Shown one piece after another: positions 8,595 through 27,444 of a stretch of DNA of 57,452 bases (positions are counted from its first letter, which is position 1; each line of letters opens with the position of its first letter). The DNA lies in assembly GCA_947090545.1 (NCBI GenBank), contig CAMUPC010000003.1, forward strand, positions 1-57,452. The letters are read 5' to 3'. Below the pieces are notes generated by a model, which saw only the letters and a list, made by a program, of their open reading frames with translations, was not told the DNA's origin and did no database searches. Origin of the DNA: an uncultured Eubacterium sp. (GTDB taxonomy: Bacteria > Bacillota > Clostridia > Lachnospirales > Lachnospiraceae). A program made the translations under genes and the position numbers.

Positions 8595-8611
8595 AAAATC
8601 GAGGAAAAGCA

Positions 8612-9451: not shown

Positions 9452-10227
9452 TCGGAAGGCTGGAAAGGCTGTACAGTTTCAGGCATTTGTTAAAACAGTT
9501 GGTCGTTAAGGATATCAAATTAAAATACAGGCGAAGCTTTTTAGGGTATGTTTGGAGTGTGCTGAATCCGCTGTTGGTTATGTTTGTGATGCTGCTTGTA
9601 TTTTCACATATGTTCCGTTCGGATATTGAGAATTTTCCGGCTTATCTGATTATTGGGCAGACGTTGTTTAACTTTATGTCAGAGGCTACAAACCAGGCAA
9701 TATTTTCCATTACGGGAAATGCGGCGCTGCTGAAAAAAGTGTATGTGCCAAAATATATTTTTACTTTATCCAAAGTAACCAGCTCGCTTGTCAATCTGCT
9801 GTTTGCGATGGGAGCAATGGTGATTGTCCTGGTGGCAAGCAAGGTGCCGTTTTCGATATCGGCTTTGTTTGTGCCAGTTGTTTTGGCTGAGCTGTATTTG
9901 TTTTCGCTTGGGTTTGGTTTGTTTTTAGCACAGGGTGCGGTATTTTTCAGGGATATTCAGTATATTTATTCGGTACTGCTTACGGCGTGGACCTATCTGA
10001 CACCGTTGTTTTACCCGATGAGCCTGCTGCCGGAGGCAATGCAGAAGGGAATCAGGCTGTGTAACCCGATGTATCACTATGTTACACAGTTTCGGGAGGC
10101 TGTCATGTACCAGCGCCTGCCGGGATGGGATTCTGTAGCATACGGGTTTGCATTGGCGCTTTTGTTTCTTGGTATTGGGACATGGTCATTTTTGAAGTCT
10201 CAGGATCGGTTTATTTTGTATTTATAA
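9448..10227 (+). CDS. ABC-2 polysaccharide export permease (Wzm/TagG-like)
   Basis: 259 residues with an N-terminal amphipathic segment (RHLLKQLVVKDIKLKYRRSF), the family signature LGYVWSVLNPLLVMFVMLLV and about six membrane helices. It belongs to the ABC-2 exporters that move undecaprenyl-linked polysaccharide or teichoic acid across the membrane. The ATPase is the next gene, 29 bases downstream. An ABC exporter means that chain assembly, or at least its core, occurs in the cytoplasm rather than by a Wzx/Wzy route. Confidence 0.9.
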   Translation: MIGRLERLYSFRHLLKQLVVKDIKLKYRRSFLGYVWSVLNPLLVMFVMLLVFSHMFRSDIENFPAYLIIGQTLFNFMSEATNQAIFSITGNAALLKKVYVPKYIFTLSKVTSSLVNLLFAMGAMVIVLVASKVPFSISALFVPVVLAELYLFSLGFGLFLAQGAVFFRDIQYIYSVLLTAWTYLTPLFYPMSLLPEAMQKGIRLCNPMYHYVTQFREAVMYQRLPGWDSVAYGFALALLFLGIGTWSFLKSQDRFILYL

Positions 10228-10256
10228 GAGTTTTTAAGCTGTGAGCAGGAGGAGTT

Positions 10257-10994
10257 ATGGGCAGCGGCAGAGTCGTGATTGAGTTGACAGATGCAGCGGT
10301 GCGGTTTAATATTGCCGCGCAGCAGGTGAACAATTTAAAAGAATATGTCATTAAGCTTGTAAAAAGGGAGCTGATGTTCCAGGAATTTTTCGCATTAAAA
10401 GGCGTCAGCTTCCAGGTAAGGGAAGGGGAGGCATGGGGGATTATCGGTACGAACGGTTCTGGAAAATCCACGCTGTTAAAGCTGATCTGCGGTATTTTAA
10501 AGCCGTACAGAGGAAACGTATTTGTGCAGGGGACATTAGCGCCGCTTATTGAGCTGGGGGCAGGTTTTGACGGAGAACTGACAGCAAGGGAAAATATCTT
10601 TTTAAACGGGGCGCTGCTTGGGCATTCGGAGGAATTTATGAAGGAACATTTTTCCCAGATCGTGGATTTTGCAGAGCTTTGGGATTTTATGGATATGCCG
10701 ATTAAAAATTATTCGTCGGGAATGTCCGCAAGGCTTGGATTTGCGGTGGCAACGGTCGTGCAGCCGGATATTTTGATCTGCGATGAAGTGCTTTCCGTTG
10801 GGGATTTCCGGTTTCAGGAAAAATGTGAAAAACGGATGCAGCAGATGCTGCGGTCAGGAACGACGCTTTTGTATGTATCACATACAATGCAGTCGGTCAA
10901 GAAGCTGTGCAGCCACGCATTGTGGCTGGAAAAGGGGAGTGTTGTGATGGCTGGCAGTACGGAAGAAGTGTGTGCAAAATATATCGGACAATAG
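10257..10994 (+). CDS. ABC transporter ATPase for polysaccharide export (Wzt/TagH-like)
   Basis: 245 residues. Walker A GTNGSGKST is at residues 64-72, signature SSGMS at 153-157 and Walker B DILICDE at 171-177. The protein ends soon after the nucleotide-binding domain and has no C-terminal carbohydrate-binding domain like that of Wzt O9a, so export is probably not controlled by a capped chain end. It pairs with the preceding permease. The stop is 28 bases before the GT2-GT4 fusion gene. Confidence 0.9.
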   Translation: MGSGRVVIELTDAAVRFNIAAQQVNNLKEYVIKLVKRELMFQEFFALKGVSFQVREGEAWGIIGTNGSGKSTLLKLICGILKPYRGNVFVQGTLAPLIELGAGFDGELTARENIFLNGALLGHSEEFMKEHFSQIVDFAELWDFMDMPIKNYSSGMSARLGFAVATVVQPDILICDEVLSVGDFRFQEKCEKRMQQMLRSGTTLLYVSHTMQSVKKLCSHALWLEKGSVVMAGSTEEVCAKYIGQ

Positions 10995-11022
10995 AACAGA
11001 AAAGAAACAGGAGTGCGAAAGC

Positions 11023-13281: not shown

Positions 13282-13320
13282 GTAGTGTTTGTGGTACAAA
13301 AGATTAATGGGGAGTAGAGT

Positions 13321-15621
13321 ATGGATTTTGATTTTTCAAAGGAACCAGGAAGATATGCAAAAAAAAGAGAATATGATTCTGCTAGTGTGGCACTGATTTC
13401 TATTGTAACCCCTTTTTATAATGCAGGGCAATATTTTCAACAGACATTTTATTCTGTCATCAATCAGACGTTTCCATGGTTTGAATGGGTGATCGTAGAT
13501 GATGGATCAACACAAGAAAAAGATATTGAGCTGCTGCATATGCTGGCTGAGCAGGATGAAAGGATCAAGGTGATTACACAACAAAACGGAGGACTTGCCT
13601 ATGCAAGAAATACGGGTATACAGAATACTTCTACAGAGATTTTTATTCCACTAGATGCGGATGACCTGATATCGCCACAGTATATTGAATATTTATATTT
13701 TGGATTATTGTTTCATCAGGAAGCAGCATGGTGTTATTCTTCGAGTGTGGGATTTGGCGGACAGGAATATTTGTGGAAAAAACCATGGGATGCAGAACGA
13801 ATGAAAACAGAGAATATGCTGGTTGCAACAGCAGCAATCCGAAAAAAAGATTGAGCAGAGATCGGAGGTTACAAAACAGAGCGGTACGCTTACAATGAGG
13901 ACTGGAGATTTTGGCTGGAAATGATGTCAAATCATAAGATACCAGTGAGGACAGGGGGATATTTGTTTTGGTACCGTAGAACTGGCAGCAGTATGCTGAG
14001 TGGGATTACACAAGATTCAGAAAAGAAAAAATTTAACGATAAAATTATACGAGCTGCCGCAAGGAATGCAGATGAGACAATTAAAGCAATCGAGTATCCA
14101 AAGGAAAAAACACACAATCCTTATTATGAACCCGTACCTTTTTGCTTGGGAGAAGCATATAAAATAAAACAGGTATGCAAAAAAATACGAATTTTAATGA
14201 TGATTCCTTGGATGGTCACTGGCGGAGCTGATAAATTCAATCTGGAATTTGTATCAGGACTGAATAAAGAAAAATATGAAATAGGAATTCTAACAACGGT
14301 GGCGTCTGATAATGAATGGCATCAAAGATTTGAAGAATATACGGATGAGATTTTTCATTTGCCCGATTTTTTGGATGCAGCTCATTATGCTGAATTTGTT
14401 AGTCATTATATCAGTTCCAGAGAAGTTGACATTGTATTTTTATCTAATTCTTATTGTGGGTACTATATGCTTCCGTGGCTGAGAAAGCATTTTCCTAAAT
14501 TATTTATTATTGATTATGTACATATGGAAGAATGGTATTGGAAAGCTGGGGGATATGCAAGGATTTCAGGGATGATGGGAGGGTTTTTGGATAAATCTTA
14601 TGTATGCAATAGTGCTACCAGAGATGTTATGATACATAAGTTTGATAGGGATGCAGGAAGTGTAAAAACGATGTATATAGGAGTGGATGTGGAGAAATAT
14701 GAGAGAAGTCAAGTGAAATCGGGAGGACTTTATCAGAAGTTTCATATCCAGGAAGACAAGGAAATTGTATTGTTTCCATGTCGTATGCATCCGCAGAAAA
14801 GGCCATTTCTAATGCTTGATATTGCACAAAAAGTTTGTAGTAAGAAGGAAAACGTATTGTTTGTAGCTGTTGGGGATGGAGTACAGCTTGGAGAGCTAAA
14901 AGCAGCAATTCAGGATAGGAATCTTGAACAGTTTGTTATTTGCACAGGGCGCAGCGACAATATGAGAGAATTTTATAAAGATGCAAAACTAACATTGATT
15001 TGTTCACTGAAAGAAGGGCTGGCTTTAACTGCTTATGAATCGTGTGCTATGGGAGTGCCTGTAATCAGCAGTGATGTCGGAGGGCAGAAGGATTTAATCG
15101 ATTGTTCTGTTGGAAGATTAATAAAAACATGCCAAGATGAAAAAGATGGGATTGATAACAAAAAGTATGATTCAAAAGAAGTTGAGGAATTTACAGATGC
15201 AATTTTACTGTTTTTAGAAGATGCGCGGTTATATAAGGAATGCAGCAAAAATTGTAGAAAGAGGGTGGAAAAAAATTTTTCAACGAAGACGATGTGCCGG
15301 AATATGGAAAAAGAAATGGAGGAGCTGGTTTTAAATGTGAAGATTGCAAAGCAGCATGAGAAAATGACACAAATGCTTTGGAAGCAGCAAAAATATGCAG
15401 AAGAATTTTATATATCCTATATGGTTATGGAGGAACGGGAAAAAGAATGCGAAGAAGTATGGAATGCAAGATGTTATTTTGAGAGTAAATTTCTACAGTT
15501 AGAGAATAAAAGACGAATCAAAAGGTTTGATAAATATGCCTTGTTTCGATGTATAAAAAAGTATGTTTGCAAAATGTTTATAAAGTTGAAGAATCGAAAA
15601 AGTATGCGGTTATACAGATAA
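13321..15621 (+). pseudogene. GT2-GT4 fusion paralogue interrupted by an in-frame TGA
   Basis: The frame is continuous for 766 codons except for a TGA at 13852-13854. It encodes MDFDFSKEPGRYAKKREYDS at the start, VDDGSTQEKD and IPLDADDL in the GT2 part, then reaches AAIRKKD-stop-AEIGGYK. After the stop the same frame gives EDWRFWLEMM and the GT4 part (MMIPWMVTGGADKFNLEFVS, SLKEGLALTAYESCAMG). It aligns end to end with the gene at 11023, which has Phe at the stop position. As annotated, a 177-residue GT2 fragment and an orphan GT4 half would result. The first 177 codons end before the GT2 acceptor helix is complete. It is A/T richer than its paralogue. Confidence 0.8.
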
Positions 15622-15676
15622 AAATATTACCTGAAAAATGCGTGAGTTAAATTTTCGTAATATTGAGGAAGGAAAA

Positions 15677-17059
15677 ATGAAATTTGGATTAATGATTGTA
15701 AATAGTACAGATAATATAGGTGACGATATTCAGTCATATGCTGCTTCGAGATTTCTTCCTGAAATCAGTTTTTATATAGATAGAGAAAAGTTGGATGCAT
15801 TTTGTGGCAGCCAGAATGGGAATCAGGTAGCGGTTATTATGAATGCCTGGTATATGTATCATAAATTTCACTGGCCGCCGTCACCCTATATTTATCCGCT
15901 TTTTATTTCTATGCATATATCTGAAAATGATTATTATGGGATAGGAACAAGATTTTTGGATGGATTGGGTGGAACATTTTTGCGTCAATATGAACCCATC
16001 GGAGCAAGAGACTATGCGACTCAGAACATACTGGAGACAAAAGGAATAAAGTCTTATCTATCAGGATGCCTTACACTTACTTTGGATAAATTTGAGGATG
16101 TATCAAAATCGAATATTGTTTATTTGGTAGATCTTGAAGAAAAAGATAAACGAAGATTAAAAGAACAATTTCCAGATGAAAAATTTGAAGAAGTTACACA
16201 CGCTGTCAGTTATATAGGTGTTGGATATAAGGAACGAATGCTTAAAGTAGAGGAGCTTTTGAAAAAATACCAGGGAGCAAAATGCGTGATAACATCCAGG
16301 CTGCATTGTGCTTTGCCATGTCTTGCTTTGGAGACACCTGTATTGTTAGTTTATAAGGATGAATATAAACACAGGATGGAGATGTATGTGCAGTATCTGC
16401 ATGTTACCACATCACAGAATATAGAAGATGATAGGATTGGATTTGATCTAAAAAACCCTCCTGCAAATAAAGCGTATTATAAGTCCATTCGAGATAACCT
16501 GAAAAAGACATGTATGGATTTTGTTCTGAGGAGCCAGCAGAAGGACAGAAAGTGTGAACAGCAAGATTTTTATGAGATAAGGAACTGGCAGGATGATCTG
16601 GTAAATGGCGCAGAATTAAAGTTTAGGAATCAGATAGAAGAATTTAAGTGCTGGTGTGATCGTCTTGAGGAGGCGAAAGAATGGAATGAAAATCGATACA
16701 TAGAATTGAAAAAAGAATATGATAGTCTGCATCATTGGTGTGAAAGTTTAGAGAAGGCAAAAGAATGGAACGAGAGCCAGTATTTGGATCTGAAAAAAGA
16801 AAATGAGAAGCTAAGTGTGTGGTGTGATGATCTAAAACAAGCGAACGAGTGGAATGAAAACCGATATTTGAGTATAAGAAAAGAATATGAAGAATTGGGT
16901 GTTTGGTGTGACAGTTTAGAACGTGCGAAGAGGTGGAATAAAAACCAGTATCTGAATCTGAAAAAAGAGTACGAAGAGCTGGAAAACTGGTGCAGGGAAT
17001 TACAAAAGGGAAAGGTATGGATTTTAAATAAGTTGAGACAGATAAAAAGGAAGAGCTAA
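15677..17059 (+). CDS. Polysaccharide pyruvyltransferase-like protein with repeat tail
   Basis: 460 residues from the ATG at 15677 (MKFGLMIVNSTDNIGDDIQS) with GAGGAAGG upstream. Residues 1 to about 285 resemble the WcaK/CsaB polysaccharide pyruvyltransferase family (PF04230): N-terminal GDDIQSYAA, then ITSRLHCALPCLALETPVLL, the conserved S/TxRLH-AL-P block. These enzymes add pyruvate ketals from PEP to sugars. From about residue 326 there are four and a half copies of a 28-residue, four-heptad repeat with consensus WCxxLExAKEWNExxYLxLK. The repeat should form a long coiled coil that tethers or multimerises the enzyme. Confidence 0.75.
   Translation: MKFGLMIVNSTDNIGDDIQSYAASRFLPEISFYIDREKLDAFCGSQNGNQVAVIMNAWYMYHKFHWPPSPYIYPLFISMHISENDYYGIGTRFLDGLGGTFLRQYEPIGARDYATQNILETKGIKSYLSGCLTLTLDKFEDVSKSNIVYLVDLEEKDKRRLKEQFPDEKFEEVTHAVSYIGVGYKERMLKVEELLKKYQGAKCVITSRLHCALPCLALETPVLLVYKDEYKHRMEMYVQYLHVTTSQNIEDDRIGFDLKNPPANKAYYKSIRDNLKKTCMDFVLRSQQKDRKCEQQDFYEIRNWQDDLVNGAELKFRNQIEEFKCWCDRLEEAKEWNENRYIELKKEYDSLHHWCESLEKAKEWNESQYLDLKKENEKLSVWCDDLKQANEWNENRYLSIRKEYEELGVWCDSLERAKRWNKNQYLNLKKEYEELENWCRELQKGKVWILNKLRQIKRKS
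16652..17035 (+). repeat. 84-bp in-frame tandem repeat in the pyruvyltransferase tail
   Basis: TGG-TGT/C (Trp-Cys) codons recur at 16652, 16736, 16820, 16904 and 16988, exactly 84 bases apart. Four units are complete and the fifth is partial. The units have diverged at the DNA level while keeping W-C, L, A-K/N, W-N, Y-L and K-E-Y positions, so selection holds the protein pattern. Unit number could vary by recombination without breaking the frame. Confidence 0.9.
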
Positions 17060-17061
17060 GT

Positions 17062-17586
17062 ATGAAGTATATTGTATTTGGAAACATAGATTGTAATACA
17101 AGTGCAGTGTTACATAATATACCATATAAGATAGAATATGTTGTTACAAACAGTAATGGCTGCGAAGGGTGTGGAACTCAGCAGCTTAGAAAGTTTATTC
17201 CTGATACAATACATTATATTGGAGTGGACTATATAGGTAGGGGGAATGATACATTAACAGCAGATTTTAATAATATGCAGTTTCCGAGCCAGCAGGCAGA
17301 TACGGTATTTTGTTCAGGCTGCCTTGAGTATATTGAAAATGCAGATTGGTTTATCGAACGTATGTGCAAGTGTGAAAGTAACGAAATTATTGTTTCTTAT
17401 TGTTGCTTGGAATATTGTATGGATATTCAGCAAAGAAGAAGATGTGGATGGAAAAATCATATGACAATCAGACAAATTATTGCAAAGTTTGCTCAATATG
17501 GTTTTACATTGGAATATACCGAAAAATCTATTGGACTTAATTTGATTTTTAAGTTTGTAAAAAGTAAGGGGGGGGGGAGAGGCTAA
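17062..17586 (+). CDS. Small SAM-methyltransferase-like protein ending in a G10 tract
   Basis: 174 residues. The pattern YIGVDYIGRGNDTLTADFNN, MQFPSQQADTVFCSGCLEYI, a reactive MCKCESNEIIVSYCCLEY strand and a terminal NLIFKFVK strand resembles a short Rossmann SAM-dependent methyltransferase, although the glycine-rich motif I is atypical. It starts two bases after the pyruvyltransferase stop. The last codons read KSKGGGRG and are made by a run of ten G (17568-17577). With nine G the tail would be shortened and read GGGEANYVE; with eleven it would run past the next start to a stop at 17655-17657. The fold itself would stay complete in every state. Confidence 0.6.
   Translation: MKYIVFGNIDCNTSAVLHNIPYKIEYVVTNSNGCEGCGTQQLRKFIPDTIHYIGVDYIGRGNDTLTADFNNMQFPSQQADTVFCSGCLEYIENADWFIERMCKCESNEIIVSYCCLEYCMDIQQRRRCGWKNHMTIRQIIAKFAQYGFTLEYTEKSIGLNLIFKFVKSKGGGRG
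17568..17577 (+). repeat. G10 homopolymer, candidate phase-variable tract
   Basis: Ten consecutive G in the context GTAA-G10-AGAGG, in the last codons of the methyltransferase-like gene. Reading phase is AAG GGG GGG GGG. Length changes alter the tail and the position where ribosomes terminate relative to the next gene's ATG at 17638. Confidence 0.8.
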
Positions 17587-17637
17587 TTATGTCGAATAGT
17601 TATTTTTTCTATGCTTTGAAAATTAGGAGATGTATCT

Positions 17638-19155
17638 ATGCAGAAGCATCAAAATAATAAATTTATTTTTTATCTGGCTGGATTTAATTTACTTGTTTGT
17701 TTTTTTGTGATGAGTTTCTTTGTATTACAAAGACATTTTTCCATAGATGATTATTGGTTGTATCATCATCAAAGCAGTAGTGCGTTGAGTGATATTTCAA
17801 GTAATTTGCGGATTGTATCGGGCTGTTTATATTTTTTACTGGACAAAGCAGGAATTAATACTGTGAGTAATCAGATCGTATTTGGAGTATTTCTGATTGG
17901 TGCTTTTGCATGGGTAGCTACCTATCTGTCCTTAGAGGTGGCTGACAGTATGGATATACAAGGCGGAAATAAAAAGTTGTTGCTGCTGAATGCAGGAACA
18001 CTTGTAATGCTGCTGAATTCGTCATTAGGCGAGTATTTGTATTTTTCAGGAGTATATTTGCAATGGGCAATATCGTTGATCGGAATGGCGATTGCAGCAG
18101 TCTATATTGGAAAAAAGGAAAATTGTACCCGAAACTGGATACAAGGAGTAGCAGCATTGGTTATCACAGCAGGCAGTTATCAAATTTTTATGGCACAGTA
18201 TGTGTATTTAGTAATGTTTTTTATATTTGTAAAAGATAAAGGATGTGCTAGTATTCGATCCGTCTGGAAGTCGATAAGAGCGGCGGGAGCAGCATTTATA
18301 GCAGTTTTTTTCAATTACATGTGCGTTCAGGCGTTGGTAAAGGTTGGGGTCGTTGATCACAAAAGCAGAATGCAATTTAATTTTTCAGAATTACCGGAGC
18401 TTTTATTTGGAATTGTACAAGCACAAAAAGCAATATGGGTGGAAGGGATGGGGGTGTATCCTGAATATTCTTTGTGCCTGTCATTGTTTTTTATGCTGGG
18501 AGTCTTAAGTGTAATGCTCTATAGAAGAAAAGTTAAGATAGGAACGTATATTTTTGCGGGAATGGTGTTGATTTCAGGACAGTGTGTTATGTGGGCTGCA
18601 ACTGTTTTACAGGGGCATATTAGTATTTTGCTTCGGATGGTATCTCCTGTATTTTGTGTTTATACTGTTGGGGTATGGATGTTTTGCTATTATCATAAGC
18701 CGAATAGCCGGAACCTGGCTGAAAAAGTTGTATTGGCTGCCATAATTCTTTTTTTGGGATGTAGTAGTATTAAGATTCAGAAAATAGCAACAGACACGCA
18801 AGTAACAAATGCGGTAACGAAATGTTATGTACAGGAGATTGATCATCGAATAAGCAGTTATGAGAAAAAACATAACATCAAAATATCCAAAGTTGGATTT
18901 TGTACAGATATGTATATCAGCTATAAATTTTATAATTATATTCAGACTGATGCATATGGAGATTTTTGCTATAATCCATTTTTGCCGGACTGGTCGAATA
19001 TTGCTTGCTTTAATTATTATAGCGGAAGGGACTTGGTTTCTACAGAGGTACCGGAACATATTCAGAGATATTATAAAAATAAAAACTGGGATAGTGCTAA
19101 TTGGGATGAACAAATTTATTTTGATGATGATACGATTTATATATGCGCTTTCTAA
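17638..19155 (+). CDS. Polytopic membrane protein, GtrII/GT-C-like
   Basis: 505 residues with an N-terminal cytoplasmic stretch (MQKHQNNKF), a first helix at about residues 10-30, and many further helices up to about 385. The end is a soluble tail with IYFDDDTIYICAF. Just after the first helix is HFSIDDYWLYHHQ, an extracytoplasmic acidic loop like the catalytic loop of GtrII and other GT-C transferases using polyprenyl-phosphate sugars. I infer a transferase that decorates the glycan outside the membrane. GGAG lies eight bases before the ATG. It lies 51 bases downstream of the G10-tailed gene. Confidence 0.65.
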   Translation: MQKHQNNKFIFYLAGFNLLVCFFVMSFFVLQRHFSIDDYWLYHHQSSSALSDISSNLRIVSGCLYFLLDKAGINTVSNQIVFGVFLIGAFAWVATYLSLEVADSMDIQGGNKKLLLLNAGTLVMLLNSSLGEYLYFSGVYLQWAISLIGMAIAAVYIGKKENCTRNWIQGVAALVITAGSYQIFMAQYVYLVMFFIFVKDKGCASIRSVWKSIRAAGAAFIAVFFNYMCVQALVKVGVVDHKSRMQFNFSELPELLFGIVQAQKAIWVEGMGVYPEYSLCLSLFFMLGVLSVMLYRRKVKIGTYIFAGMVLISGQCVMWAATVLQGHISILLRMVSPVFCVYTVGVWMFCYYHKPNSRNLAEKVVLAAIILFLGCSSIKIQKIATDTQVTNAVTKCYVQEIDHRISSYEKKHNIKISKVGFCTDMYISYKFYNYIQTDAYGDFCYNPFLPDWSNIACFNYYSGRDLVSTEVPEHIQRYYKNKNWDSANWDEQIYFDDDTIYICAF

Positions 19156-19179
19156 ATATAACATAAGATAGGTGAAACT

Positions 19180-19716
19180 ATGATTTTAAGATGTTTGAGA
19201 CGGGAAGATATACCAAAGATGCTGGAATGGATGCATGATCCTGAGATTAATCGTTATTTTCAGTTTGATGCACAACAAATGACAGCAGAAAAAGTACAAG
19301 CATTTATTCAAAAAGCGGGCATTCAGGCGAAAACAAAGGAATGTTTTCATTTTGCGATAGCGGATGAAAATAATGAATATATGGGGACAATTAGTTTAAA
19401 ATATATAGATTGGGACGCAAAGTCTGCTGAGTATGCGATCAGTTTACGGAAAATTGCACAAGGACGTCAAATAGCTTTTTGGGCGACGTGGGAGGTGTTA
19501 AATTATGCGTTTGAGGTGCTTTTGCTTCAACAAGTTTATTTGACCGTTTTACCGGAAAACGCCAAAGCGATTCGCTTATATGAAAGGATTGGCTTTATTT
19601 ATGAAGGTGAATCTAAGGAATGTATTTCTATACGTGGAGAATATAAAAACTTGAGAAGGTATCGAATGCTGCTACAAGAATATTTAGATTATAAAAAAGA
19701 AAGCAAAAAATTATGA
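19180..19716 (+). CDS. GNAT acetyltransferase (RimJ/WecD-like)
   Basis: 178 residues covering a complete GNAT fold: ILRCLRREDIPKMLEWMHDP at the start, then FAIADENNEYMGTISLKYID, an acetyl-CoA loop (RKIAQGRQIAFWAT, atypical of the usual Q/RxxGxG/A) and VLPENAKAIRLYERIGFIYE. It probably N-acetylates the amino group of the 3-amino sugar made by the nearby ketoisomerase and aminotransferase. That role is usually played by a hexapeptide enzyme (FdtC/QdtC), so this would be a replacement. Its gene is 16 bases upstream of the GT2 gene. Confidence 0.75.
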   Translation: MILRCLRREDIPKMLEWMHDPEINRYFQFDAQQMTAEKVQAFIQKAGIQAKTKECFHFAIADENNEYMGTISLKYIDWDAKSAEYAISLRKIAQGRQIAFWATWEVLNYAFEVLLLQQVYLTVLPENAKAIRLYERIGFIYEGESKECISIRGEYKNLRRYRMLLQEYLDYKKESKKL

Positions 19717-19732
19717 AAGAAGGGGCGGCAAT

Positions 19733-20782
19733 ATGGATAGAATTGCAGTATTGGTTCCCTGTTACAATGAAGCAAATACGATTAGAAAAGTGATTAAAGA
19801 TTTTAAAGAGATTTTACCAGATGCAGTCATTTATGTATATGATAATAATTCATCAGATGGAACAGATAAAATTGCTCAAGATGCAGGAGCGGTTGTCCGT
19901 TATGAATATCAGCAGGGAAAAGGAAATGTTATTCGGAGAATGTTTGCGGAGATTTATGCAGAGTGTTACATTTTGGTCGATGGTGATGACACATATCCAG
20001 CAGAATGCGCCAGGCAAATGGTAGAATGCGTATTGGGGCATAAGGCGGATATGGTAATAGGTGACAGGCTTTCATCTACTTATTTTAATGAAAATAAGAG
20101 GCTTTTTCACAATGTTGGAAATTGTTTGGTTCGATGGGGAATAAATTTTCTATTTCAAAATGATATCAAAGATATTATGACAGGGTATCGAGCATTTAGT
20201 TTTCGGTTTGTTAAAACATTTCCTGTATTGTCGCAGGGGTTCGAGATTGAAACAGAAATGAGTATCCATGCGATTGATAAAAATATGTATGTGGAAAGCA
20301 TTATATGTAATTACAGGGATCGCCCGGAAGGAAGCATATCAAAGTTGAATACATTTGCTGATGGCATAAAAGTAATTTTAACAATATTACGTTTATTTCG
20401 TACTTATCGGCCGATGAAGTTTTTTAGTTTGATTGCGGCAATTTTAGGAGTTAGTTCTATTTTATTTTTTATTCCTGTATTCGAGGAATATATTAATACA
20501 GGATTGGTTCTTAAATTTCCAACATTGATTGTATGCGGTTTTGTAATAATTTCTGCGTTATATTCATTGTTCGCTGGAATTGTGCTACAAACAATATATC
20601 AAAAAAACAGACAGGATTTTGAAATGGAATTGTACCGAGTAACCAAAGAACAGCCATACATACCTGAAAATAAGGGGGGGGGGGAGAATGTAAGAAATTC
20701 TAAAATGCAAGGGATGAAGATAGAACAACTATATCAGAACAGAGTAAAAAAGAAGGGGCGAATATTATGTCAAAACATATAG
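19733..20782 (+). CDS. GT2 polyprenyl-phosphate sugar synthase-like protein with G11-dependent tail
   Basis: 349 residues. The GT-A domain (residues 1 to about 220) shows VLVPCYNEANTIRKVIKDFK, VYDNNSSDGT and LVDGDDTYP, as in dolichol-phosphate mannosyltransferase-like enzymes. Two membrane helices follow (about 225-250 and 262-290). The natural end appears to be near QTIYQKNRQDFEMELYRV. The remaining 40 residues pass through eleven G (20674-20684) and read on to a stop inside the next gene. Ten G would stop at 20691-20693 and twelve at 20701-20703. It probably makes a lipid-linked sugar donor for one of the polytopic membrane transferases. Confidence 0.8.
   Translation: MDRIAVLVPCYNEANTIRKVIKDFKEILPDAVIYVYDNNSSDGTDKIAQDAGAVVRYEYQQGKGNVIRRMFAEIYAECYILVDGDDTYPAECARQMVECVLGHKADMVIGDRLSSTYFNENKRLFHNVGNCLVRWGINFLFQNDIKDIMTGYRAFSFRFVKTFPVLSQGFEIETEMSIHAIDKNMYVESIICNYRDRPEGSISKLNTFADGIKVILTILRLFRTYRPMKFFSLIAAILGVSSILFFIPVFEEYINTGLVLKFPTLIVCGFVIISALYSLFAGIVLQTIYQKNRQDFEMELYRVTKEQPYIPENKGGGENVRNSKMQGMKIEQLYQNRVKKKGRILCQNI
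20674..20684 (+). repeat. G11 homopolymer, candidate phase-variable tract
   Basis: Eleven G in the context ATAA-G11-AGAAT within the GT2 tail. Reading phase is AAG GGG GGG GGG GAG. At eleven G the GT2 frame overlaps the ketoisomerase start at 20767 by 16 bases; at ten or twelve it stops 64-76 bases before it. Confidence 0.8.
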
Positions 20783-21183
20783 GGGCGCAGATGCTGGAAT
20801 TTTCAGAGTGCGGTGATGAAAGAGGGCATTTAGTTGTTGTAGAAGCAATGAAGGATATTTTATTTGATATAAAAAGAATATTTTATATGTATGGATCAGA
20901 TACGACTGTGGTCAGAGGCCAGCACGCAAATAAAAAGTCGGAATTTGTTTTGATTAATGTTTCGGGACAGAGTAAGGTCAGGGTAAAAGATGGTAAAGGA
21001 AATGAAGCGGTTTTTGTTTTGAACAGACCGCATACAGGCATTTATCTGCCAAGGATGATATGGAAGGATATGTATGATTTTAGTGAAGATTCCGTATTGC
21101 TCTGTCTGGCAAGCGAACATTATGATGCAGAGGAATATATCCGGGATTATGATGAATTTATGAATCTAATCAATAAGGAGTAA
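20767..21183 (+). CDS. dTDP-sugar 3,4-ketoisomerase-like (FdtA/QdtA, WxcM-like cupin)
   Basis: 138 residues forming a single cupin: EFSECGDERGHLVVVEAMKD, IKRIFYMYGS, the conserved RGQHANKKSEFVLINVSGQS with its catalytic histidine, and GIYLPRMIWKDMYDFSEDSV. The family (PF05523) converts dTDP-4-keto-6-deoxyglucose to the 3-keto isomer. With the DegT aminotransferase at 23882 and the GNAT at 19180 it defines a route to a 3-acylamino-3,6-dideoxyhexose (Fuc3NAc or Qui3NAc type). RmlA and RmlB are not in the window. The ribosome binding site AAGAAGGGG lies inside the GT2 tail. Confidence 0.85.
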   Translation: MSKHIGAQMLEFSECGDERGHLVVVEAMKDILFDIKRIFYMYGSDTTVVRGQHANKKSEFVLINVSGQSKVRVKDGKGNEAVFVLNRPHTGIYLPRMIWKDMYDFSEDSVLLCLASEHYDAEEYIRDYDEFMNLINKE

Positions 21184-21186
21184 GGG

Positions 21187-22128
21187 ATGAAGCTATCAAT
21201 TGTAATTCCTGTATATTATAATGAGAATAATTTGATGCCTTTGTATGACGATTTAAAAAGAAAAGTGATTGATGTGATTGATTACGAATATGAAATTATT
21301 TTCATAAACGACGGATCACAAGATAACAGCCTTGAACAGATGAAAGAGTTGGCAAAAAGCGATCGTAATATTAAGGTGATAAGTCTTTCAAGAAATTTTG
21401 GATCTCATGCTGCGATATTATGTGGTTTGTCAAAATGTACAGGTGATTGTGCTGTTATTAAAGCGGCTGATTTGCAGGAACCATCTGAACTGGTTTTAGA
21501 AATGGTTGACAAGTGGAAGGATGGCTGTAATGTTGTTTTGGCAGTCAGGAAAGACAGGAAAGAGAGCAGAAAACAGACGGTGTTTGCAAATATATATTAT
21601 GCTATGGTGCGTAATTTGGCTTTACCAGCCATGCCTAAGGGTGGATTTGACGTATATTTAATTGATAAGAAGGTGATTCATGTACTGCTGGCATTGGATG
21701 AGAAAAACAGTGCTTTGACCGGACAGATTTTGTGGAGTGGATTTCGCACTGAGCAGGTGTATTATACAAGGCTTTCCAGAAAGATTGGGACGAGCCGGTG
21801 GACGTTGAAAAAGAAGATAAGGTTAGTAACAGATACCCTGTTTTCGTTTTCAACATTTCCCATTCAGGTTGTCACTGCGGTTGGAGTATTTTCATTTTTA
21901 GGGTCTTTGTTATGGGCTGTATTTGTATTAATTCTCAAACTAAAAGGCGGAATTGAAGTTAATGGATGGACGACGCTGTTCATTTTTCAGTTGTTTGGCT
22001 TTGGAGTAATTATGTTGACATTGGGGATACTGGGAGAGTATTTATGGCGTACATTTGATGCAGCAAGAGGAAGGCCGGCTTATATTATTGAAGATGAAGC
22101 AGATGGGAAAGACTATCGGTCGGAATAA
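21187..22128 (+). CDS. GT2 polyprenyl-phosphate glycosyltransferase (GtrB/ArnC-like)
   Basis: 313 residues. The GT-A domain has SIVIPVYYNENNLMPLYDDL, IIFINDGSQDNS, LSRNFGSHAAILCGL (the GtrB/ArnC loop) and AADLQEP in place of the metal-binding D-x-D. Two C-terminal membrane helices (about 227-255 and 265-290) end with GEYLWRTFDAARGRPAYIIE, the usual end of bactoprenol glucosyltransferases. It should load a hexose onto undecaprenyl phosphate. A membrane protein follows 15 bases downstream, as in Gtr side-chain cassettes. Confidence 0.9.
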   Translation: MKLSIVIPVYYNENNLMPLYDDLKRKVIDVIDYEYEIIFINDGSQDNSLEQMKELAKSDRNIKVISLSRNFGSHAAILCGLSKCTGDCAVIKAADLQEPSELVLEMVDKWKDGCNVVLAVRKDRKESRKQTVFANIYYAMVRNLALPAMPKGGFDVYLIDKKVIHVLLALDEKNSALTGQILWSGFRTEQVYYTRLSRKIGTSRWTLKKKIRLVTDTLFSFSTFPIQVVTAVGVFSFLGSLLWAVFVLILKLKGGIEVNGWTTLFIFQLFGFGVIMLTLGILGEYLWRTFDAARGRPAYIIEDEADGKDYRSE

Positions 22129-22143
22129 GGCGGTTTTGAAATT

Positions 22144-23904
22144 ATGAAAAAGAAGATGATATTGCAGGGTGTGCTGATGTATTCTTGGATTTCATTATTG
22201 GTGGATACGGATGCATACTATGTGCCGTATTTAATTGTAGGTATTTTTTCTTTCGTATGCTTTTATATCAATTACAAAGAGGAACATGATATAGAGTATC
22301 AAATACATAAGTATGCTGTTAAAATTTGTTCTATTGTATTCTCTCTTATAATTGTGTTATCAAATTATTCATTATGGACTGAATTTGACGGAAGAATGGG
22401 GTATCAGTGTGTATTATTTTTATTGTTAAGTATAGGCGGCTATTTTACAGCACAAAATATATTGATTTTTTGTGCTGTAAAGGAAAAAAGTATTTCCTTG
22501 AAAGAAGTAAACAGAAGAAATATTTCATCTATAATGATATTTTGGATGTCTTTTGTGGCGATATCCTTTACAAATATTTTTATATTAATTACATGCAGAT
22601 ATCCCGGTGTTTTGTCACCTGATAGTATTTGGCAGGTCAATCAGCTAATGACAGGAAGTTATTCTAACCATCATCCTTTTTACCACACGATTACAGTAAA
22701 GATTTTGATCTCAGTAGGATTAAAGATATTTGGAAATATGAATGCAGCAGTAGCGATGTATCATATATTTCAAATATTGTTTATGGCAATGTGTTTTTCA
22801 ATGGTATCTTTAACTTTATATGAGATGAAGATTAAGTTAAAAATAATTCTATTTGTGACGTGTGGCTATATTCTGATGCCGTATCATATTATGTATAGTT
22901 TTACTATGTGGAAGGATGTTATGTTTAGCGGGTTTGTTACCTTGTTTGTGGCCTTTACATATCGAATGTTAAAAAACATTGGAAACAGAAGATTAGTCAA
23001 TTATTTTATGTTATTAATTTCTGCTATAGGAGTATGTCTGTTTAGGAGTAATGGATTTTTTGCTTTTTTGCTTACTTCGGTGATGTTTGTGCTATTTTTC
23101 TGGAAAAAGGAAAGAAAAGCTTGTTGGTTGCTTCTAGGAGTTTTATGTCTCAGTTTTTTTATGAAACACAGTGTATTGCGTATGGCAGGTGTAAGCCAGC
23201 CGGATACAGTTGAAGCACTGTCGATTCCTTTGCAGCAGATTGCACGAGTGGAGATAGAACATCATGATTTTACATACAAGCAAAAGGAGTTGTTAGAGCA
23301 AGTTCTTGATATAGAAGAGATTTCTGAAACGTATACAGCATGGTTGTCAGATCCTATGAAGGAACTTGTGCGAAAAAAAGGAAATCAGAAGTATTTAGTA
23401 GATCATAAGTTTGCATATATGAAATTATATTTGGAAACAGGTATCAAACATCCATGGACGTATTTAAAAGCGTGGATTGATCAAACAAAAGGATTTTGGA
23501 ATGCTGGTTACCCATATTGGCGATGGATGGAAGGGGTTGTAGACAATTCGTATGAGATTACAGAGGTTGTAAATTCTGCATGGCTAAACAGGATTTTCAA
23601 TCTGTATTTGTGGTTTTTTTCTAATAGCCGTTTTTTGCAGATATTTTTGTGTATAGGCTTTCATATCTGGATAGAACTGCTTTTATGCTTTATAAATATT
23701 TTAAAGAGAAATAAGGTTGAATTGTTTCTTAATGCACTTAATTTGGCACTTTTCATTTCGCTTGTAATAACAACTCCGGTATATGCGGAATTCAGATATG
23801 TATATTTTGTGTTTTGTAATCTGCCTTTTTTGGCAGTAACTACTTTTGCATCGGAAAGAAATAAAAAGAGAAAGGATAAAGATGATGAATACTATTCAAA
23901 ATAG
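22144..23904 (+). CDS. Large polytopic membrane protein, DUF6020-like
   Basis: 586 residues with about 12 predicted membrane helices. Between the fourth and fifth helices is CRYPGVLSPDSIWQVNQLMT followed by GSYSNHHPFYHT, a conserved acidic/histidine loop typical of DUF6020 and of GT-C-like transferases. FTMWKDVMFSGF follows. This loop is on the outer face and probably holds the active site for transfer from a lipid-linked sugar, plausibly the product of the GtrB-like enzyme just upstream. The stop overlaps the aminotransferase start by 23 bases. Confidence 0.65.
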   Translation: MKKKMILQGVLMYSWISLLVDTDAYYVPYLIVGIFSFVCFYINYKEEHDIEYQIHKYAVKICSIVFSLIIVLSNYSLWTEFDGRMGYQCVLFLLLSIGGYFTAQNILIFCAVKEKSISLKEVNRRNISSIMIFWMSFVAISFTNIFILITCRYPGVLSPDSIWQVNQLMTGSYSNHHPFYHTITVKILISVGLKIFGNMNAAVAMYHIFQILFMAMCFSMVSLTLYEMKIKLKIILFVTCGYILMPYHIMYSFTMWKDVMFSGFVTLFVAFTYRMLKNIGNRRLVNYFMLLISAIGVCLFRSNGFFAFLLTSVMFVLFFWKKERKACWLLLGVLCLSFFMKHSVLRMAGVSQPDTVEALSIPLQQIARVEIEHHDFTYKQKELLEQVLDIEEISETYTAWLSDPMKELVRKKGNQKYLVDHKFAYMKLYLETGIKHPWTYLKAWIDQTKGFWNAGYPYWRWMEGVVDNSYEITEVVNSAWLNRIFNLYLWFFSNSRFLQIFLCIGFHIWIELLLCFINILKRNKVELFLNALNLALFISLVITTPVYAEFRYVYFVFCNLPFLAVTTFASERNKKRKDKDDEYYSK

Positions 23905-24979
23905 GCTGGATCGAGGGTTTTACTTGTATCAGGAAGAATATGAACAGAAGGCATTAGAAGTGCTTCGTTCTGGCTGGTATGTGCTTGGAAAAGAAGGAGA
24001 ATGTTTTGAAGAAGAATTTGCACGGTATCTTGGAGCTAAATATTGTGTGGGCCTAGCGAGTGGACTGGATGCGCTTTGGATTGCATTTAAGATGTTAGGT
24101 ATTGGAGTGGGAGATGAGGTTATTGTCCAGGGAAATACCTATATTGCAAGTATAATGGGAATTACGATTAATGGTGCGGTTCCTGTATTTGTAGAGCCTG
24201 ATGAGTTTTTTAATATTGATGTTTCGCGTATTGAAGAGAAGATAACAGAAAAAACAAAGGCTATTTTAGTAGTGCACCTGTATGGCCAGGCTGCTGATAT
24301 GAAAGCGATTATGGAGATTGCAGAAAAATACCATATAAAAGTGGTAGAAGATTGTGCGCAATCACATGGTGCTTCTTTTTGTGGAAAAATGACAGGGACT
24401 TTTGGTGAAATAGGTTGCTTTTCATTTTACCCGACGAAGAATCTGGGCGCATTTGGAGATGGTGGTGCAATTGTCACAAACAATGAAAAAATTGCAGAAA
24501 ATGTGCGCATATTCCGCAATTATGGAAGTGAGAAAAAATATTATAATAAGATTGTCGGGGCAAATTCAAGACTGGATGAACTACAAGCTGGGATGCTACG
24601 TGTAAAACTTTCTCATATAGAAGAATTAAGAGCATACAGAAATAAGCTTTGTAAACGTTATCAAATGGAAATAAGGAATTCTGAACTGATTCTTCCACAA
24701 ATTAGAGATGGGGCGGATCATGTATGGCATCAATTTGTGGTTCGATCAAGGCATCGTGAAAGATTTATAGACGAATTGAATAAGAAAAGGATAGGCACAA
24801 TGATTCACTATCCAATTCCACCGCATCTGTCTCAGGCATATCGATATTTGAATATAAAAAAGGGAAGCCTTCCAGTTACAGAAGCTTATGCAGAAGAAGT
24901 ATGTTCGCTTCCGTTGTATGATGGAATGACAGAGGAAGAGCAGGATTATATTATACATGCAATCAATTCTTTAGAATGA
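23882..24979 (+). CDS. DegT/DnrJ/EryC1/StrS sugar aminotransferase (FdtB/QdtB-like)
   Basis: 365 residues from the ATG at 23882 (or 23885) with GAAAGGA upstream; the in-frame extension to 23846 has no ribosome site. PLP-enzyme features are LASGLDALWIAFK, VVEDCAQSHGA with the cofactor-ring Asp, and CFSFYPTKNLGAFGDGGAIV with the Schiff-base lysine. The C-terminus has IGTMIHYPIPPHL and CSLPLYDGMTEEEQDYII. This is the VioA/FdtB class that aminates 3-keto or 4-keto dTDP sugars with glutamate; the neighbouring ketoisomerase points to C3. It shares an ATGA with the next gene. Confidence 0.9.
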   Translation: MMNTIQNRLDRGFYLYQEEYEQKALEVLRSGWYVLGKEGECFEEEFARYLGAKYCVGLASGLDALWIAFKMLGIGVGDEVIVQGNTYIASIMGITINGAVPVFVEPDEFFNIDVSRIEEKITEKTKAILVVHLYGQAADMKAIMEIAEKYHIKVVEDCAQSHGASFCGKMTGTFGEIGCFSFYPTKNLGAFGDGGAIVTNNEKIAENVRIFRNYGSEKKYYNKIVGANSRLDELQAGMLRVKLSHIEELRAYRNKLCKRYQMEIRNSELILPQIRDGADHVWHQFVVRSRHRERFIDELNKKRIGTMIHYPIPPHLSQAYRYLNIKKGSLPVTEAYAEEVCSLPLYDGMTEEEQDYIIHAINSLE

Positions 24980-26505
24980 AAGTAAGGAAATTGAAAATGA
25001 AGGCATTTTTTATTTATTGCAGGAACCGTAGAAATTTTGTGGTATGGATATTTGCATTTGCGTTTTTGACGTACTTTTTTCTGGGATTTTGGAATTCTTA
25101 TTCACAGGCTTTTACAAAATGCACTTACTTTGGTTCCGACAACGAACGAGTATACGGGGATCTGACAAATATTGTATATAATCATTATCGAATAAAGGTA
25201 CATCCATTATTTTTGCTGGCTGCACAGACCATTACTGTTTTTTTGAATAAAATCATCAATGATCCCATTATGGCAGTTATCATAGAAGAGGCTTTCTGCG
25301 GTGCGATGTCAGTAGGTGTAGTGTATTTGATATTAAAAACTAAAAATATTGAAAAACATCTTTGTATATTTTTTACATTGATCTATGCAGCAAGTTTTTC
25401 GATGATGATATTTTCAGCAGTTCCAGAAACTTTTATTTTTGCTGGATTAGATTTGCTTAGTTACTGGTTTTTTATTACAGTAGCATTAAAATCGAAAGAT
25501 CCATTATCAGGAACAGAGTTTTTATTGCTTATTTTCTTTGGCGTAATATGTTTTGGAATTACATTTACCAATTTTTTAAGCTATATAATCGGTTTGATTG
25601 TTTTGCTATCATGCAGATATGATGTTAAGACAGCGGTCAAAGAATTTTTTCTGATCAATATAATGAATAGTATTGCAATAATCGTATTGTGCCTTTTTCA
25701 GCGGTATATTTGGGAGGATTGTCCGCTTTTTTGGACGAGTATTATAGGATGGATGCATGGAGAAGGATATGAAGAAACCATGTATATGGATTGGCAATTT
25801 ACAATTTCTAAAACAGTGGTATGGTTGAAAAATATTTTTTTGTATCCGTTATTTTCACCAAATGTATATGCAATAAAGATGAACGAGAAACTTGTCTGTA
25901 TTTTATTCGGAAGTTATTCAAATTTTATGATTAAATTATTATTGATCATTTTTTATACAGTGTCATTTACAGCCATCTTAAAAAAAATGTTAACGATAAG
26001 TAAGTTGTCCGAAAAAAATGAGAGAAAATATATTTTAGGGCTATTAGCTGCCTTTGGAAGTAATGCAGTTTTACATTATATTTATGGCTATATGGAAGCG
26101 TTTATTTATACGCCGCATTTTTTCTTTTTATTTATATTATTGACAGCATTATCATTGCAGGACATTAAAAATACAAAGTATCAGTATCTGCTAAAATCAG
26201 GATTCTTTTTCTTTTTGATTGTTGAGTTTGTTAATAATTTTTTGCGTTTTCACAATATGACAAGAGTAGCATCAAGGCTTGCGGAGACAGATCATTATCC
26301 AAGATTATCCGTAAAAGTTATTTTGCTGATGGGCGGAGGACTTGCCTTTTCTGTATATTATGTGTATAGCAAGTGGAAAAGAGTTCGAGTGGAAACACCT
26401 AAGGATAAACCAAATGGAAAGATGGATGGTTTATGTAGATTTGTTATTGCGTACATAGTTATAGTTTTTACTTCAGGTTTATATATTGTATTTTGGAAGG
26501 GATGA
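24976..26505 (+). CDS. Polytopic membrane protein, GT-C-like
   Basis: 509 residues. After the first helix (about 18-38) comes the extracytoplasmic segment CTYFGSDNERVYGDLTNIVY followed by NHYRIKVHPLFLL, an acidic/His loop like those of GT39/GT-C enzymes. Around ten further helices follow. AVPETFIFAGLDLLSY and FGITFTNFLSYI resemble other clostridial glycosyltransferase-like membrane proteins. ATG 24976 overlaps the previous stop; MKAFFIYC at 24997 is another possible start. It lies directly before the UbiA gene and may use its lipid-linked pentose product. Confidence 0.6.
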   Translation: MKVRKLKMKAFFIYCRNRRNFVVWIFAFAFLTYFFLGFWNSYSQAFTKCTYFGSDNERVYGDLTNIVYNHYRIKVHPLFLLAAQTITVFLNKIINDPIMAVIIEEAFCGAMSVGVVYLILKTKNIEKHLCIFFTLIYAASFSMMIFSAVPETFIFAGLDLLSYWFFITVALKSKDPLSGTEFLLLIFFGVICFGITFTNFLSYIIGLIVLLSCRYDVKTAVKEFFLINIMNSIAIIVLCLFQRYIWEDCPLFWTSIIGWMHGEGYEETMYMDWQFTISKTVVWLKNIFLYPLFSPNVYAIKMNEKLVCILFGSYSNFMIKLLLIIFYTVSFTAILKKMLTISKLSEKNERKYILGLLAAFGSNAVLHYIYGYMEAFIYTPHFFFLFILLTALSLQDIKNTKYQYLLKSGFFFFLIVEFVNNFLRFHNMTRVASRLAETDHYPRLSVKVILLMGGGLAFSVYYVYSKWKRVRVETPKDKPNGKMDGLCRFVIAYIVIVFTSGLYIVFWKG

Positions 26506-26511
26506 AAAAGG

Positions 26512-27294
26512 ATGGAAAACATAGTTTTGTTGATGCGGACGAAGCATTGGTTGAAAAATAGTTTAATTTTTTTCCCTGCCTTTTTTTCAAAAGAAATATG
26601 GAATAAGCAGATAATGATGAATCTATTTTGGGGATTTATGTGTTTTTGTTTTGTGACTTCCATTGTGTATATTTTTAATGATATTAAAGATATTGAAAGA
26701 GACAGGATGCATGAGGTTAAATGCAGGCGTCCGCTTGCAGTCGGACTTGTAAGTAAAAAGGAAGCAAAAATGATCGTTGTATTTTTAGGAATAGGAGCAA
26801 TGCTTTGTAATTATATGATAAGAGTTGACGGTGCTAGGATACATATGATTTGGTGTGGTATTTATATAATTTTAAATTTTTCATACAGCATATGGATAAA
26901 ACACATACCAATTTTAGATGTTTTCGTATTGGCAGCAGGGTTTATAATAAGAATTTTTTATGGTGCATCTGTAAGTGGGGTGTATGCTTCAGGTTGGCTG
27001 TGTTTGACAGTAATGTCATTTGCTTTATATATGGGAATTGGAAAAAGGAAAATCGAACTAGATAAGGAAAGTGGTAATTCCACAAGGCATGTATTGAAAT
27101 ATTACAGTATTGCGTTGCTTGACAGATATATGATAATAGCAGTTACGTTAGGAATAGTGTTTTATTCCTTGTGGGCGGGAATTGTGATAGAAAGCCGATG
27201 GATGATATGGACGGTACCTTTGGTTTTAATGATTATTATGAAATATGAAATGATTTTAAGGGGGGGGGGGGAGAAGCTTATGGAGATCCGGTAG
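26512..27294 (+). CDS. UbiA-family (DPPR-synthase-like) prenyltransferase, truncated by a G12 tract
   Basis: As read, 260 residues ending RGGGEKLMEIR. The first Asp-rich site is NDIKDIERDRMHEVKCRRPL and the second region is IPILDVFVLAAGFIIRI. The closest class I recognise is decaprenyl-phosphate phosphoribosyltransferase, which adds phosphoribose from PRPP to polyprenyl phosphate. The family normally continues with G-D/E-P-x-E-V-L-L-x-D and a last membrane helix. That segment exists here in another frame: GEAYGDPVEVLLSDRYLFGL, ending with a TAG at 27378-27380. Twelve G at 27260-27271 put it out of frame; 10 or 13 G would restore a 288-289 residue protein. The assembled state is probably OFF or impaired. 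Confidence 0.8.
   Translation: MENIVLLMRTKHWLKNSLIFFPAFFSKEIWNKQIMMNLFWGFMCFCFVTSIVYIFNDIKDIERDRMHEVKCRRPLAVGLVSKKEAKMIVVFLGIGAMLCNYMIRVDGARIHMIWCGIYIILNFSYSIWIKHIPILDVFVLAAGFIIRIFYGASVSGVYASGWLCLTVMSFALYMGIGKRKIELDKESGNSTRHVLKYYSIALLDRYMIIAVTLGIVFYSLWAGIVIESRWMIWTVPLVLMIIMKYEMILRGGGEKLMEIR
27260..27271 (+). repeat. G12 homopolymer that sets the UbiA reading frame
   Basis: Twelve G in the context TTTTAA-G12-AGAAG. The codon before is A+GG (Arg), then three GGG. Ten or thirteen G lead into GGA-GAA-GCT-TAT-GGA-GAT-CCG; eleven or twelve lead to early stops. The tract encodes a Gly-rich loop just before the last membrane helix. Confidence 0.85.
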
Positions 27295-27444
27295 AAGTTT
27301 TGTTGTCTGACAGGTATTTGTTTGGGTTGGTTATATTTTATATAACAGAACTGTATCTATTTATGTATATTATTGATTAGGCGGATGTGTAATATAGGTT
27401 TATTAAGATATGGTGATAGATAGGTATACAAAAACTTGTGTATG

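What the first reader, a model, noticed from the sequence alone, without database searches (positions are those of the whole stretch)
26512..27380. G12 tract switches a UbiA/DPPR-synthase-like enzyme between full length and truncated
The gene ends prematurely at 27294 because twelve G at 27260-27271 place the remaining codons out of frame. The other frame encodes the missing family C-terminus (GDPVEVLLSDRYLFGL plus a hydrophobic helix) and ends at 27380. Ten or thirteen G restore 288-289 residues. G runs of this length are known slippage hotspots (Campylobacter, Neisseria, Bordetella). Phase variation by poly-G in a gut Firmicute surface-glycan operon is not something I know to be described. 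The enzyme would gate supply of a lipid-linked pentose.
Basis: partly seen in the sequence, partly recalled or inferred. Interest (0 to 1): 0.87.

Follow-up and report, generated by a model that had tools for sequence, protein, structure and literature searches.

The report
Poly-G switch in sugar-coat gene
A run of twelve Gs cuts short an enzyme gene for building the sugar coat of an unnamed bacterium, and it is one of dozens of similar G-runs in the same genome and genus that look like random genetic on/off switches.

Summary
G12 lies at 27260-27271 and the UbiA/DPPR-synthase-like ORF stops at 27294. The family's missing C-terminus (YGDPVEVLLSDR plus a hydrophobic segment) is intact in another frame to 27380. 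All 36 complete relatives examined run past the truncation point; none has a G run of 8 or more.

The finding is larger than reported. The window's glycan cluster holds three tracts (G10, G11, G12), all on the coding strand. The genome has 93 runs of G>=9, and 13 of 13 species held for the genus have some. Run lengths are bimodal. In-ORF tracts of exactly 9 G read through in 53 of 71 cases, other lengths in 6 of 38. At 16 aligned tract pairs from two species, length differs in 13 and reading state in 9.

Best explanation: slipped-strand contingency loci that diversify the surface glycan, with this UbiA OFF as sequenced. Switching in a clone was not observed, and the window's own tracts have no orthologous tract to compare. 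Poly-G phase variation is known; ten library searches listed no report in Firmicutes, the nearest being Bifidobacterium pili. Unexplained: TA follows about half of the genus's tracts, in every codon phase.

The parts
26512..27294 (+). UbiA-superfamily (DPPR-synthase-like) ORF as sequenced, 260 aa, truncated
   Evidence: Pfam PF01040 E 1.4e-20; NF008978 E 4.8e-47, 160.5 bits against a cut-off of 207; PDB 8j8j E 8.9e-24
27260..27271 (+). G12 tract
27272..27380 (+). C-terminal tail of the UbiA family in another frame (YGDPVEVLLSDR..., hydrophobic segment)
   Evidence: 36 of 36 complete relatives have residues past the truncation, with a recognisable tail in nearly all
17568..17577 (+). G10 tract at the 3' end of methyltransferase-like ORF 17062-17586; one of its frames would end 20 nt inside the next gene
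   Evidence: Pfam Methyltransf_11 E 1.8e-4
20674..20684 (+). G11 tract at the 3' end of AglJ-like GT2 ORF 19733-20782; as sequenced its stop overlaps the next start by 16 nt, the other two frames stop 63 and 73 nt before it
   Evidence: TIGR04182 E 3.2e-62, 210.6 bits against a cut-off of 325
7290..27380 (+). surface-glycan gene cluster that holds the three tracts
   Evidence: for the scanned genes (GT4, pyruvyl-transferase-like, weak GtrII, GT2, DUF6020, DegT aminotransferase, UbiA); ABC export pair, other GT2s and acetyltransferase are read from the translations by recall

Best explanation
The G12 run is a slipped-strand (replication slippage) contingency tract, one of dozens in this genome. 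Gain or loss of G moves the last ~36 codons of a membrane UbiA-type polyprenyl-phosphate phosphoribosyltransferase in or out of frame. As sequenced the enzyme lacks its final hydrophobic segment and is most likely OFF. Together with the other tracts of the cluster and genome, it would let a clone draw many surface-glycan variants at random, by switching decorating enzymes (methyl-, acyl- and glycosyltransferases) and donor-lipid synthesis. Shown: the tract, the frames, the intact displaced tail, the genus-wide excess of long G runs, the coupling of tract length to reading frame, and length differences between two species at aligned tracts elsewhere. Inferred: slippage as the cause, reversibility within a clone, loss of activity of the short form, and the sugar affected.
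For: (1) Displaced tail kept open and conserved: YGDPVEVLLSDR is identical in the two nearest relatives (G004 and the own-genome paralogue); 36 of 36 complete relatives run past the truncation and none has a G run of 8 or more. (2) Bimodal run lengths in the sampled stretches of G000 and three congeners. (3) In-ORF tracts with at least 120 nt open on both sides: G9 reads through in 53 of 71, other lengths in 6 of 38; ordinary G4-5 runs read through in 77-89%. (4) 16 aligned tract pairs, G000 against G002: length differs in 13, reading state in 9. (5) 13 of 13 species of the genus held have runs of G>=9, 3 to 116 each; in a family sample 8 of 299 genomes have 20 or more and 115 have none. (6) Of 50 tract-gene pieces scanned in Pfam, 19 matched methyltransferase families (3 of them below the gathering score), 5 acyl/acetyltransferases, 2 deacetylases, 2 GT2, 2 sugar kinase/epimerase families, 10 other families and 10 nothing. 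(7) MutS1 and MutL are present over cut-off in G000, so loss of mismatch repair is not needed to explain the tracts.
Against: No reads, strains or single-colony data: switching is unobserved. The window's three tracts have no orthologous tract among the relatives compared; the nearest UbiA relatives have none. The assemblies compared are drafts of 100-500 contigs, except G001 (6 contigs), whose mutS and mutL are split, so its indels are suspect. G9 does not always read through (18 of 71 shift). The length-frame test is not significant on its own in G002 (p 0.066) or G001 (p 0.43). One of the nine state differences comes from a flanking indel at equal tract length. The window's tracts lack the genus's common TA context. 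The cut form keeps the invariant motif regions of the alignment, so partial activity is possible. Two of the three window tracts lie beyond the recognised domain and may not inactivate their own protein.
Confidence: 0.82

Rival explanations
1. Fixed frameshift: this UbiA copy is a young pseudogene and the tract is only where the indel happened to fall.
For: A paralogue with an intact tail exists in the same genome (58% identical), which could cover the function. A neighbouring GT gene (13321-15621) is split by an in-frame TGA.
Against: The tail is still open and conserved. Half of the in-ORF tracts sampled in G000 (23 of 46) are in the shifted state yet have at least 120 nt open downstream, which is not what scattered decay gives.
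Confidence: 0.1
2. Sequencing or assembly error in the run length; the real genome is in frame.
For: G runs are error-prone in sequencing. Several contig ends in this assembly are very long G runs (C172, C196, C206), which look artefactual. PMC9187656 itself warns about annotated G-tract lengths (passage read).
Against: Many tracts lie well inside contigs and recur at the same sites in another species' assembly, often with other lengths. Length and reading frame are correlated as biology predicts. An error of length would not remove the tract itself.
Confidence: 0.07
3. Transcriptional or ribosomal slippage on the run makes both protein forms from one DNA length (programmed frameshifting) rather than DNA-level switching.
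For: Long homopolymers can slip at RNA level (general knowledge). The two 3'-end tracts in the window sit where a frame change would alter overlap with the next start.
Against: If every length worked through slippage there would be no reason for lengths other than 9 to be out of frame so often (6 of 38 through) while 9 is in frame (53 of 71).
Confidence: 0.12
4. The 3'-end tracts (17568, 20674) switch translational coupling to the next gene, not the activity of the protein that carries them. This can hold beside the main explanation.
For: As sequenced the GT2 stop at 20782 overlaps the next start (20767) by 16 nt and the other frames stop 63 and 73 nt before it. At 17568 one frame would overlap the next gene by 20 nt and the others stop 38 and 51 nt before it. 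Two similar GT2 genes in the same genome (L133 7189 G9, L140 7578 G10) carry tracts at the corresponding 3' end.
Against: No expression data. It does not apply to the UbiA tract, which has no following gene of the cluster.
Confidence: 0.35

Closest known systems
Bifidobacterium breve UCC2003 pilus G-tracts (bbr_0113, bbr_1889; PMC9187656, passages read)
   Same: Gram-positive gut commensal; a homopolymeric G tract separates two ORFs; replication slippage joins them; surface function
   Different: Actinobacteria (recall); pilin genes, one or two clusters per genome; slippage measured by deep sequencing. Here mostly glycan-modifying enzymes, dozens of loci, switching not measured
Campylobacter jejuni poly-G contingency genes such as Cj1295 (PMC3068675, listing and start of abstract seen; details recalled)
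   Same: Homopolymeric tracts inside genes that modify surface or flagellar glycans
   Different: Gram-negative; here ON length is mostly 9 in every codon phase, with a common TA 3' context
Decaprenyl-phosphate phosphoribosyltransferase (DPPR synthase; PDB 8j8j, 8j8k; mycobacterial by recall)
   Same: Aligned over residues 4-252 of the window protein (E 8.9e-24); the tract falls at its Gly-Gly near residue 269 of 302
   Different: Full length; arabinan pathway partners were not looked for in the window
Vibrio cholerae O1 phase-variable O-antigen genes (PMC3441752, listing and start of abstract seen)
   Same: Phase-variable surface-polysaccharide genes; link to phage and immunity
   Different: Gram-negative O antigen; few loci (recall)

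Membership tests
Poly-G contingency (phase-variable) locus | Long G run inside an ORF whose length decides the reading frame | tested here: met
Poly-G contingency (phase-variable) locus | Such runs are far commoner than expected, with a gap at shorter lengths | tested here: met
Poly-G contingency (phase-variable) locus | Run length differs between relatives at the same site, other tracts of the genome | tested here: met
   13 of 16 aligned pairs G000/G002 differ
Poly-G contingency (phase-variable) locus | Run length differs between relatives at the window's own UbiA site | tested here: inconclusive
   no relative with a tract at this site was found; G004 has GGAGATTC there
Poly-G contingency (phase-variable) locus | Reversible switching within a clone | not testable with these tools
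   no reads or colonies
UbiA superfamily | Match to the family profile over its gathering score | tested here: met
   PF01040 74.1 bits against 34.2
Decaprenyl-phosphate phosphoribosyltransferase (NCBIfam equivalogs) | Score over the curated cut-off | tested here: not met
   NF008978 160.5 bits against 207; the protein is truncated
Decaprenyl-phosphate phosphoribosyltransferase (NCBIfam equivalogs) | Conserved C-terminal GDPxEV-type tail and last hydrophobic segment | tested here: not met
   absent from the protein as sequenced, present in another frame
Decaprenyl-phosphate phosphoribosyltransferase (NCBIfam equivalogs) | Transfers phosphoribose from PRPP to a polyprenyl phosphate | not testable with these tools
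   needs an assay

The most novel reading that the evidence does not exclude
The genus runs a genome-wide poly-G contingency programme, of the scale known from Campylobacter (recall), in a gut Firmicute-like lineage. Its tracts tend to obey a DNA-level rule (A/T-rich stretch, ~9 G, then TA) in all three codon phases, pointing to a dedicated sequence context that sets the slippage rate or created the tracts, rather than chance expansion. Some 3'-end tracts would act as switches of translational coupling between neighbouring genes.
Probability: 0.35. Interest if true: 0.87.

Novelty: new variant of a known kind. Interest (0 to 1): 0.74.

Why it matters
Poly-G phase variation is a textbook trick of mucosal pathogens. 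If a gut Firmicute-like genus carries dozens of such switches in surface-glycan enzymes, a single species would present a shifting set of surface structures to phages and host immunity. Reference genomes, many glycan 'pseudogenes' in draft genomes and antigen studies would then need rereading. It can be tested directly with existing sequencing reads.

Tried and rejected
Assembly artefact for the whole set: rejected for in-contig tracts (same sites in another species' assembly, frame-length coupling), kept for the very long G runs at contig ends. Tracts in an intergenic repeat ('G9 ACGCTGG(A/G)GG...', often near contig ends) and other tracts were set aside by the rule of at least 120 nt open on both sides. 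That rule dropped 27 of 73 tracts in G000, 16 of 46 in G002, 23 of 48 in G003 and 10 of 18 in G001.

TA as a stop-codon device: rejected as a full account. TA follows in all three ON phases, and its third base gives TAA 30, TAT 20, TAC 10, TAG 8 among 124 deduplicated tracts.

Loss of mismatch repair as the cause: not supported. MutS1 and MutL are over cut-off in 12 of 13 genomes each; the one without (G007) has only 3 tracts.

G001 as a finished reference: weakened, because its mutS, mutL and one UbiA are split.

Exact-match look for the UbiA site in viral contigs: none. Structure prediction: tool switched off, so the loss of the last segment rests on alignment to 8j8j and on the sequence. 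Plasmid tblastn gave 96 records, all under 60% identity.

Full report
Observation. The window (57,452 bases, GC 43%) has exactly three G or C runs of 7 or more: G10 at 17568-17577, G11 at 20674-20684 and G12 at 27260-27271, all on the + strand of one gene cluster. The UbiA ORF 26512-27294 encodes 260 aa and ends ...ILRGGGEKLMEIR. Another frame through the tract reads ...GGGGEAYGDPVEVLLSDRYLFGLVIFYITELYLFMYIID and stops at 27380.

What the gene is. Pfam UbiA matches residues 37-249, E 1.4e-20. The best NCBIfam models are decaprenyl-phosphate phosphoribosyltransferases, E 4.8e-47, below their cut-offs. The solved relative is 8j8j, a decaprenyl-phosphate phosphoribosyltransferase (mycobacterial by recall): residues 4-252 align to 17-269 of its 302. 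A full-length relative shows the tail aligning onward from DVDGGLAGEPED. The tract therefore lies in a Gly-rich loop before the last hydrophobic segment. I surveyed 40 fetched relative loci by tblastn. L116 and L118 run off contig ends, and L084/L086 are one disrupted locus of G001. The remaining 36 all continue 22 or more residues beyond their match, past the truncation point, with a recognisable tail in nearly all; none has a G run of 8 or more from the match start to its stop (longest 7). The nearest, G004 (62% identical), reads ILKGDSYGDPVEVLLSD and the own-genome paralogue reads IRGNSYGDPVEVLLSD. So, among those seen, the short form is peculiar to this copy.

Neighbourhood. Scanned genes of the cluster match GT4, a pyruvyl-transferase family (PF04230), GT2, DUF6020, DegT aminotransferase and weakly GtrII; the ABC export pair and other genes are read by recall. 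The G10 tract ends a methyltransferase-like ORF. The G11 tract ends an AglJ-like GT2; two similar GT2 genes elsewhere in the genome also carry tracts there, G9 and G10. As sequenced the GT2 stop overlaps the next start by 16 nt, and the other frames stop 63 and 73 nt short. For the G10 tract one frame would overlap the next gene by 20 nt. This suggests, but does not show, a switch of translational coupling.

Genome and genus. The genome (4.42 Mb draft, 380 contigs) has 93 runs of G>=9 preceded by another base, intergenic and contig-end ones included, and 37 of exactly 7. All 13 species held for the genus have some: 93, 16, 64, 97, 37, 116, 4, 3, 34, 63, 15, 47 and 7 for G000-G012. In 299 genomes of the family, 115 have none and 8 have 20 or more. 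In 728 kb of tract-bearing stretches of G000, counts by length 5-12 and 14 are 292, 13, 2, 10, 41, 14, 5, 2 and 1. The stretches of G001, G002 and G003, chosen in the same way, show the same gap and second peak.

Length and frame. I took tracts of G>=8 with at least 120 nt open on both sides and asked whether the longest frame entering is the longest frame leaving. G9: 21 of 28 (G000), 10 of 15 (G002), 18 of 22 (G003), 4 of 6 (G001). Other lengths: 2 of 18, 4 of 15, 0 of 3, 0 of 2. Fisher p is 4.6e-5 for G000, 0.066 for G002, 0.015 for G003 and 0.43 for G001. G4-5 runs read through in 85, 89, 85 and 77%. Paired tracts of G000 and G002 aligned by blastn: 16 pairs counted, lengths differ in 13, reading state in 9, once through a flanking indel at equal length. 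Pairs from duplicated methyltransferase genes (three of the 16) are partly arbitrary; two further paralogous pairings of the same genes (one, one only) were not counted. Some relatives have interrupted runs at the same place (GGGGTGGGG, GAGGGAGGG, GGGGGGAGGG), as expected of tracts that lost slippage.

Genes. Of 54 pieces of 90 or more residues next to G000 tracts outside the window, I scanned 50 in five calls: 19 matched methyltransferase families (three below the gathering score), 5 acyl or hexapeptide acetyltransferases, 2 deacetylases, 2 GT2, 2 sugar kinase/epimerase families and 10 others. The others include two LytTR response regulators, a solute-binding protein and Ig-like/YDG surface proteins. 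Ten had no match.

Context motif. Among 124 deduplicated in-ORF tracts of four species, TA follows in 68, against 5% of 2505 G4-5 runs. AAAA or TTTT lies within 14 nt upstream in 51% against 19%. ON phases are evenly spread (22, 22, 23). By species TA follows 44 of 73 (G000), 26 of 46 (G002), 14 of 48 (G003) and 5 of 18 (G001) tracts of G>=8. In small samples of nine other genera of the family it is 11 of 21, 3 of 6, 1 of 6, 3 of 3, 0 of 2, 1 of 2, 0 of 2, 3 of 3 and 1 of 3. In 149 genomes of the phylum, G9TA against its reversed control is 28 to 2 in G000 and, by my sum of the rows, 36 to 21 in the other 148. The window's own three tracts are followed by AGA instead. I cannot explain the motif.

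Mechanism. Slipped-strand mispairing at the G run is the simplest account. Mismatch repair genes are present. Switching in a clone is not shown. The short UbiA is inferred to be inactive because it lacks the conserved tail.

Literature. Ten counted searches of the held library were run. Judged from their listings, none returned a report of poly-G phase variation in a Firmicute. The nearest was Bifidobacterium breve pilus G-tracts (PMC9187656, passages read). Passages of PMC12413058 and PMC13317340 had nothing on this. PMC6437147, PMC3068675 and PMC3441752 were seen in listings with the start of the abstract only. Most subscription papers and all bioRxiv preprints are outside the library.

Noticed in passing
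window 13321-15621: A GT2/GT4 fusion gene, similar to the intact 10972-13281, is split by an in-frame TGA at 13852-13854; the frame is otherwise open on both sides.
   Followed up: partly
G000-G003 tracts: TA follows about half of the long in-ORF G runs in every codon phase and an A/T-rich stretch often precedes them; no explanation found.
   Followed up: partly
L216-L221 (G157, another genus of the family): A 1.6 Mb, 68% complete genome has 126 runs of G>=9. In the 120 kb sampled both G8 and G9 read through in ORFs (G9 7 of 11, G8 5 of 6), unlike the window's genus; one looks like gpsA (recalled motif).
   Followed up: partly
L148 16279, L150 113, L157 102, L158 47 and others: An intergenic-looking repeat in G000 begins with G9-G10 followed by ACGCTGG(A/G)GG...; it often lies near contig ends.
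   Followed up: no
L141 17498, L152 9355: Two LytTR-type response regulators carry G tracts (G9, G10), so regulators as well as enzymes may be switched.
   Followed up: no
L126 8141, 11915 and 17359: Large Ig-like/YDG-domain surface proteins in tandem carry G8-G9 tracts; downstream open frames of up to 3.5 kb hang on them.
   Followed up: no
G007: The only species of the genus without MutS1 and MutL over cut-off has just 3 long G runs.
   Followed up: no
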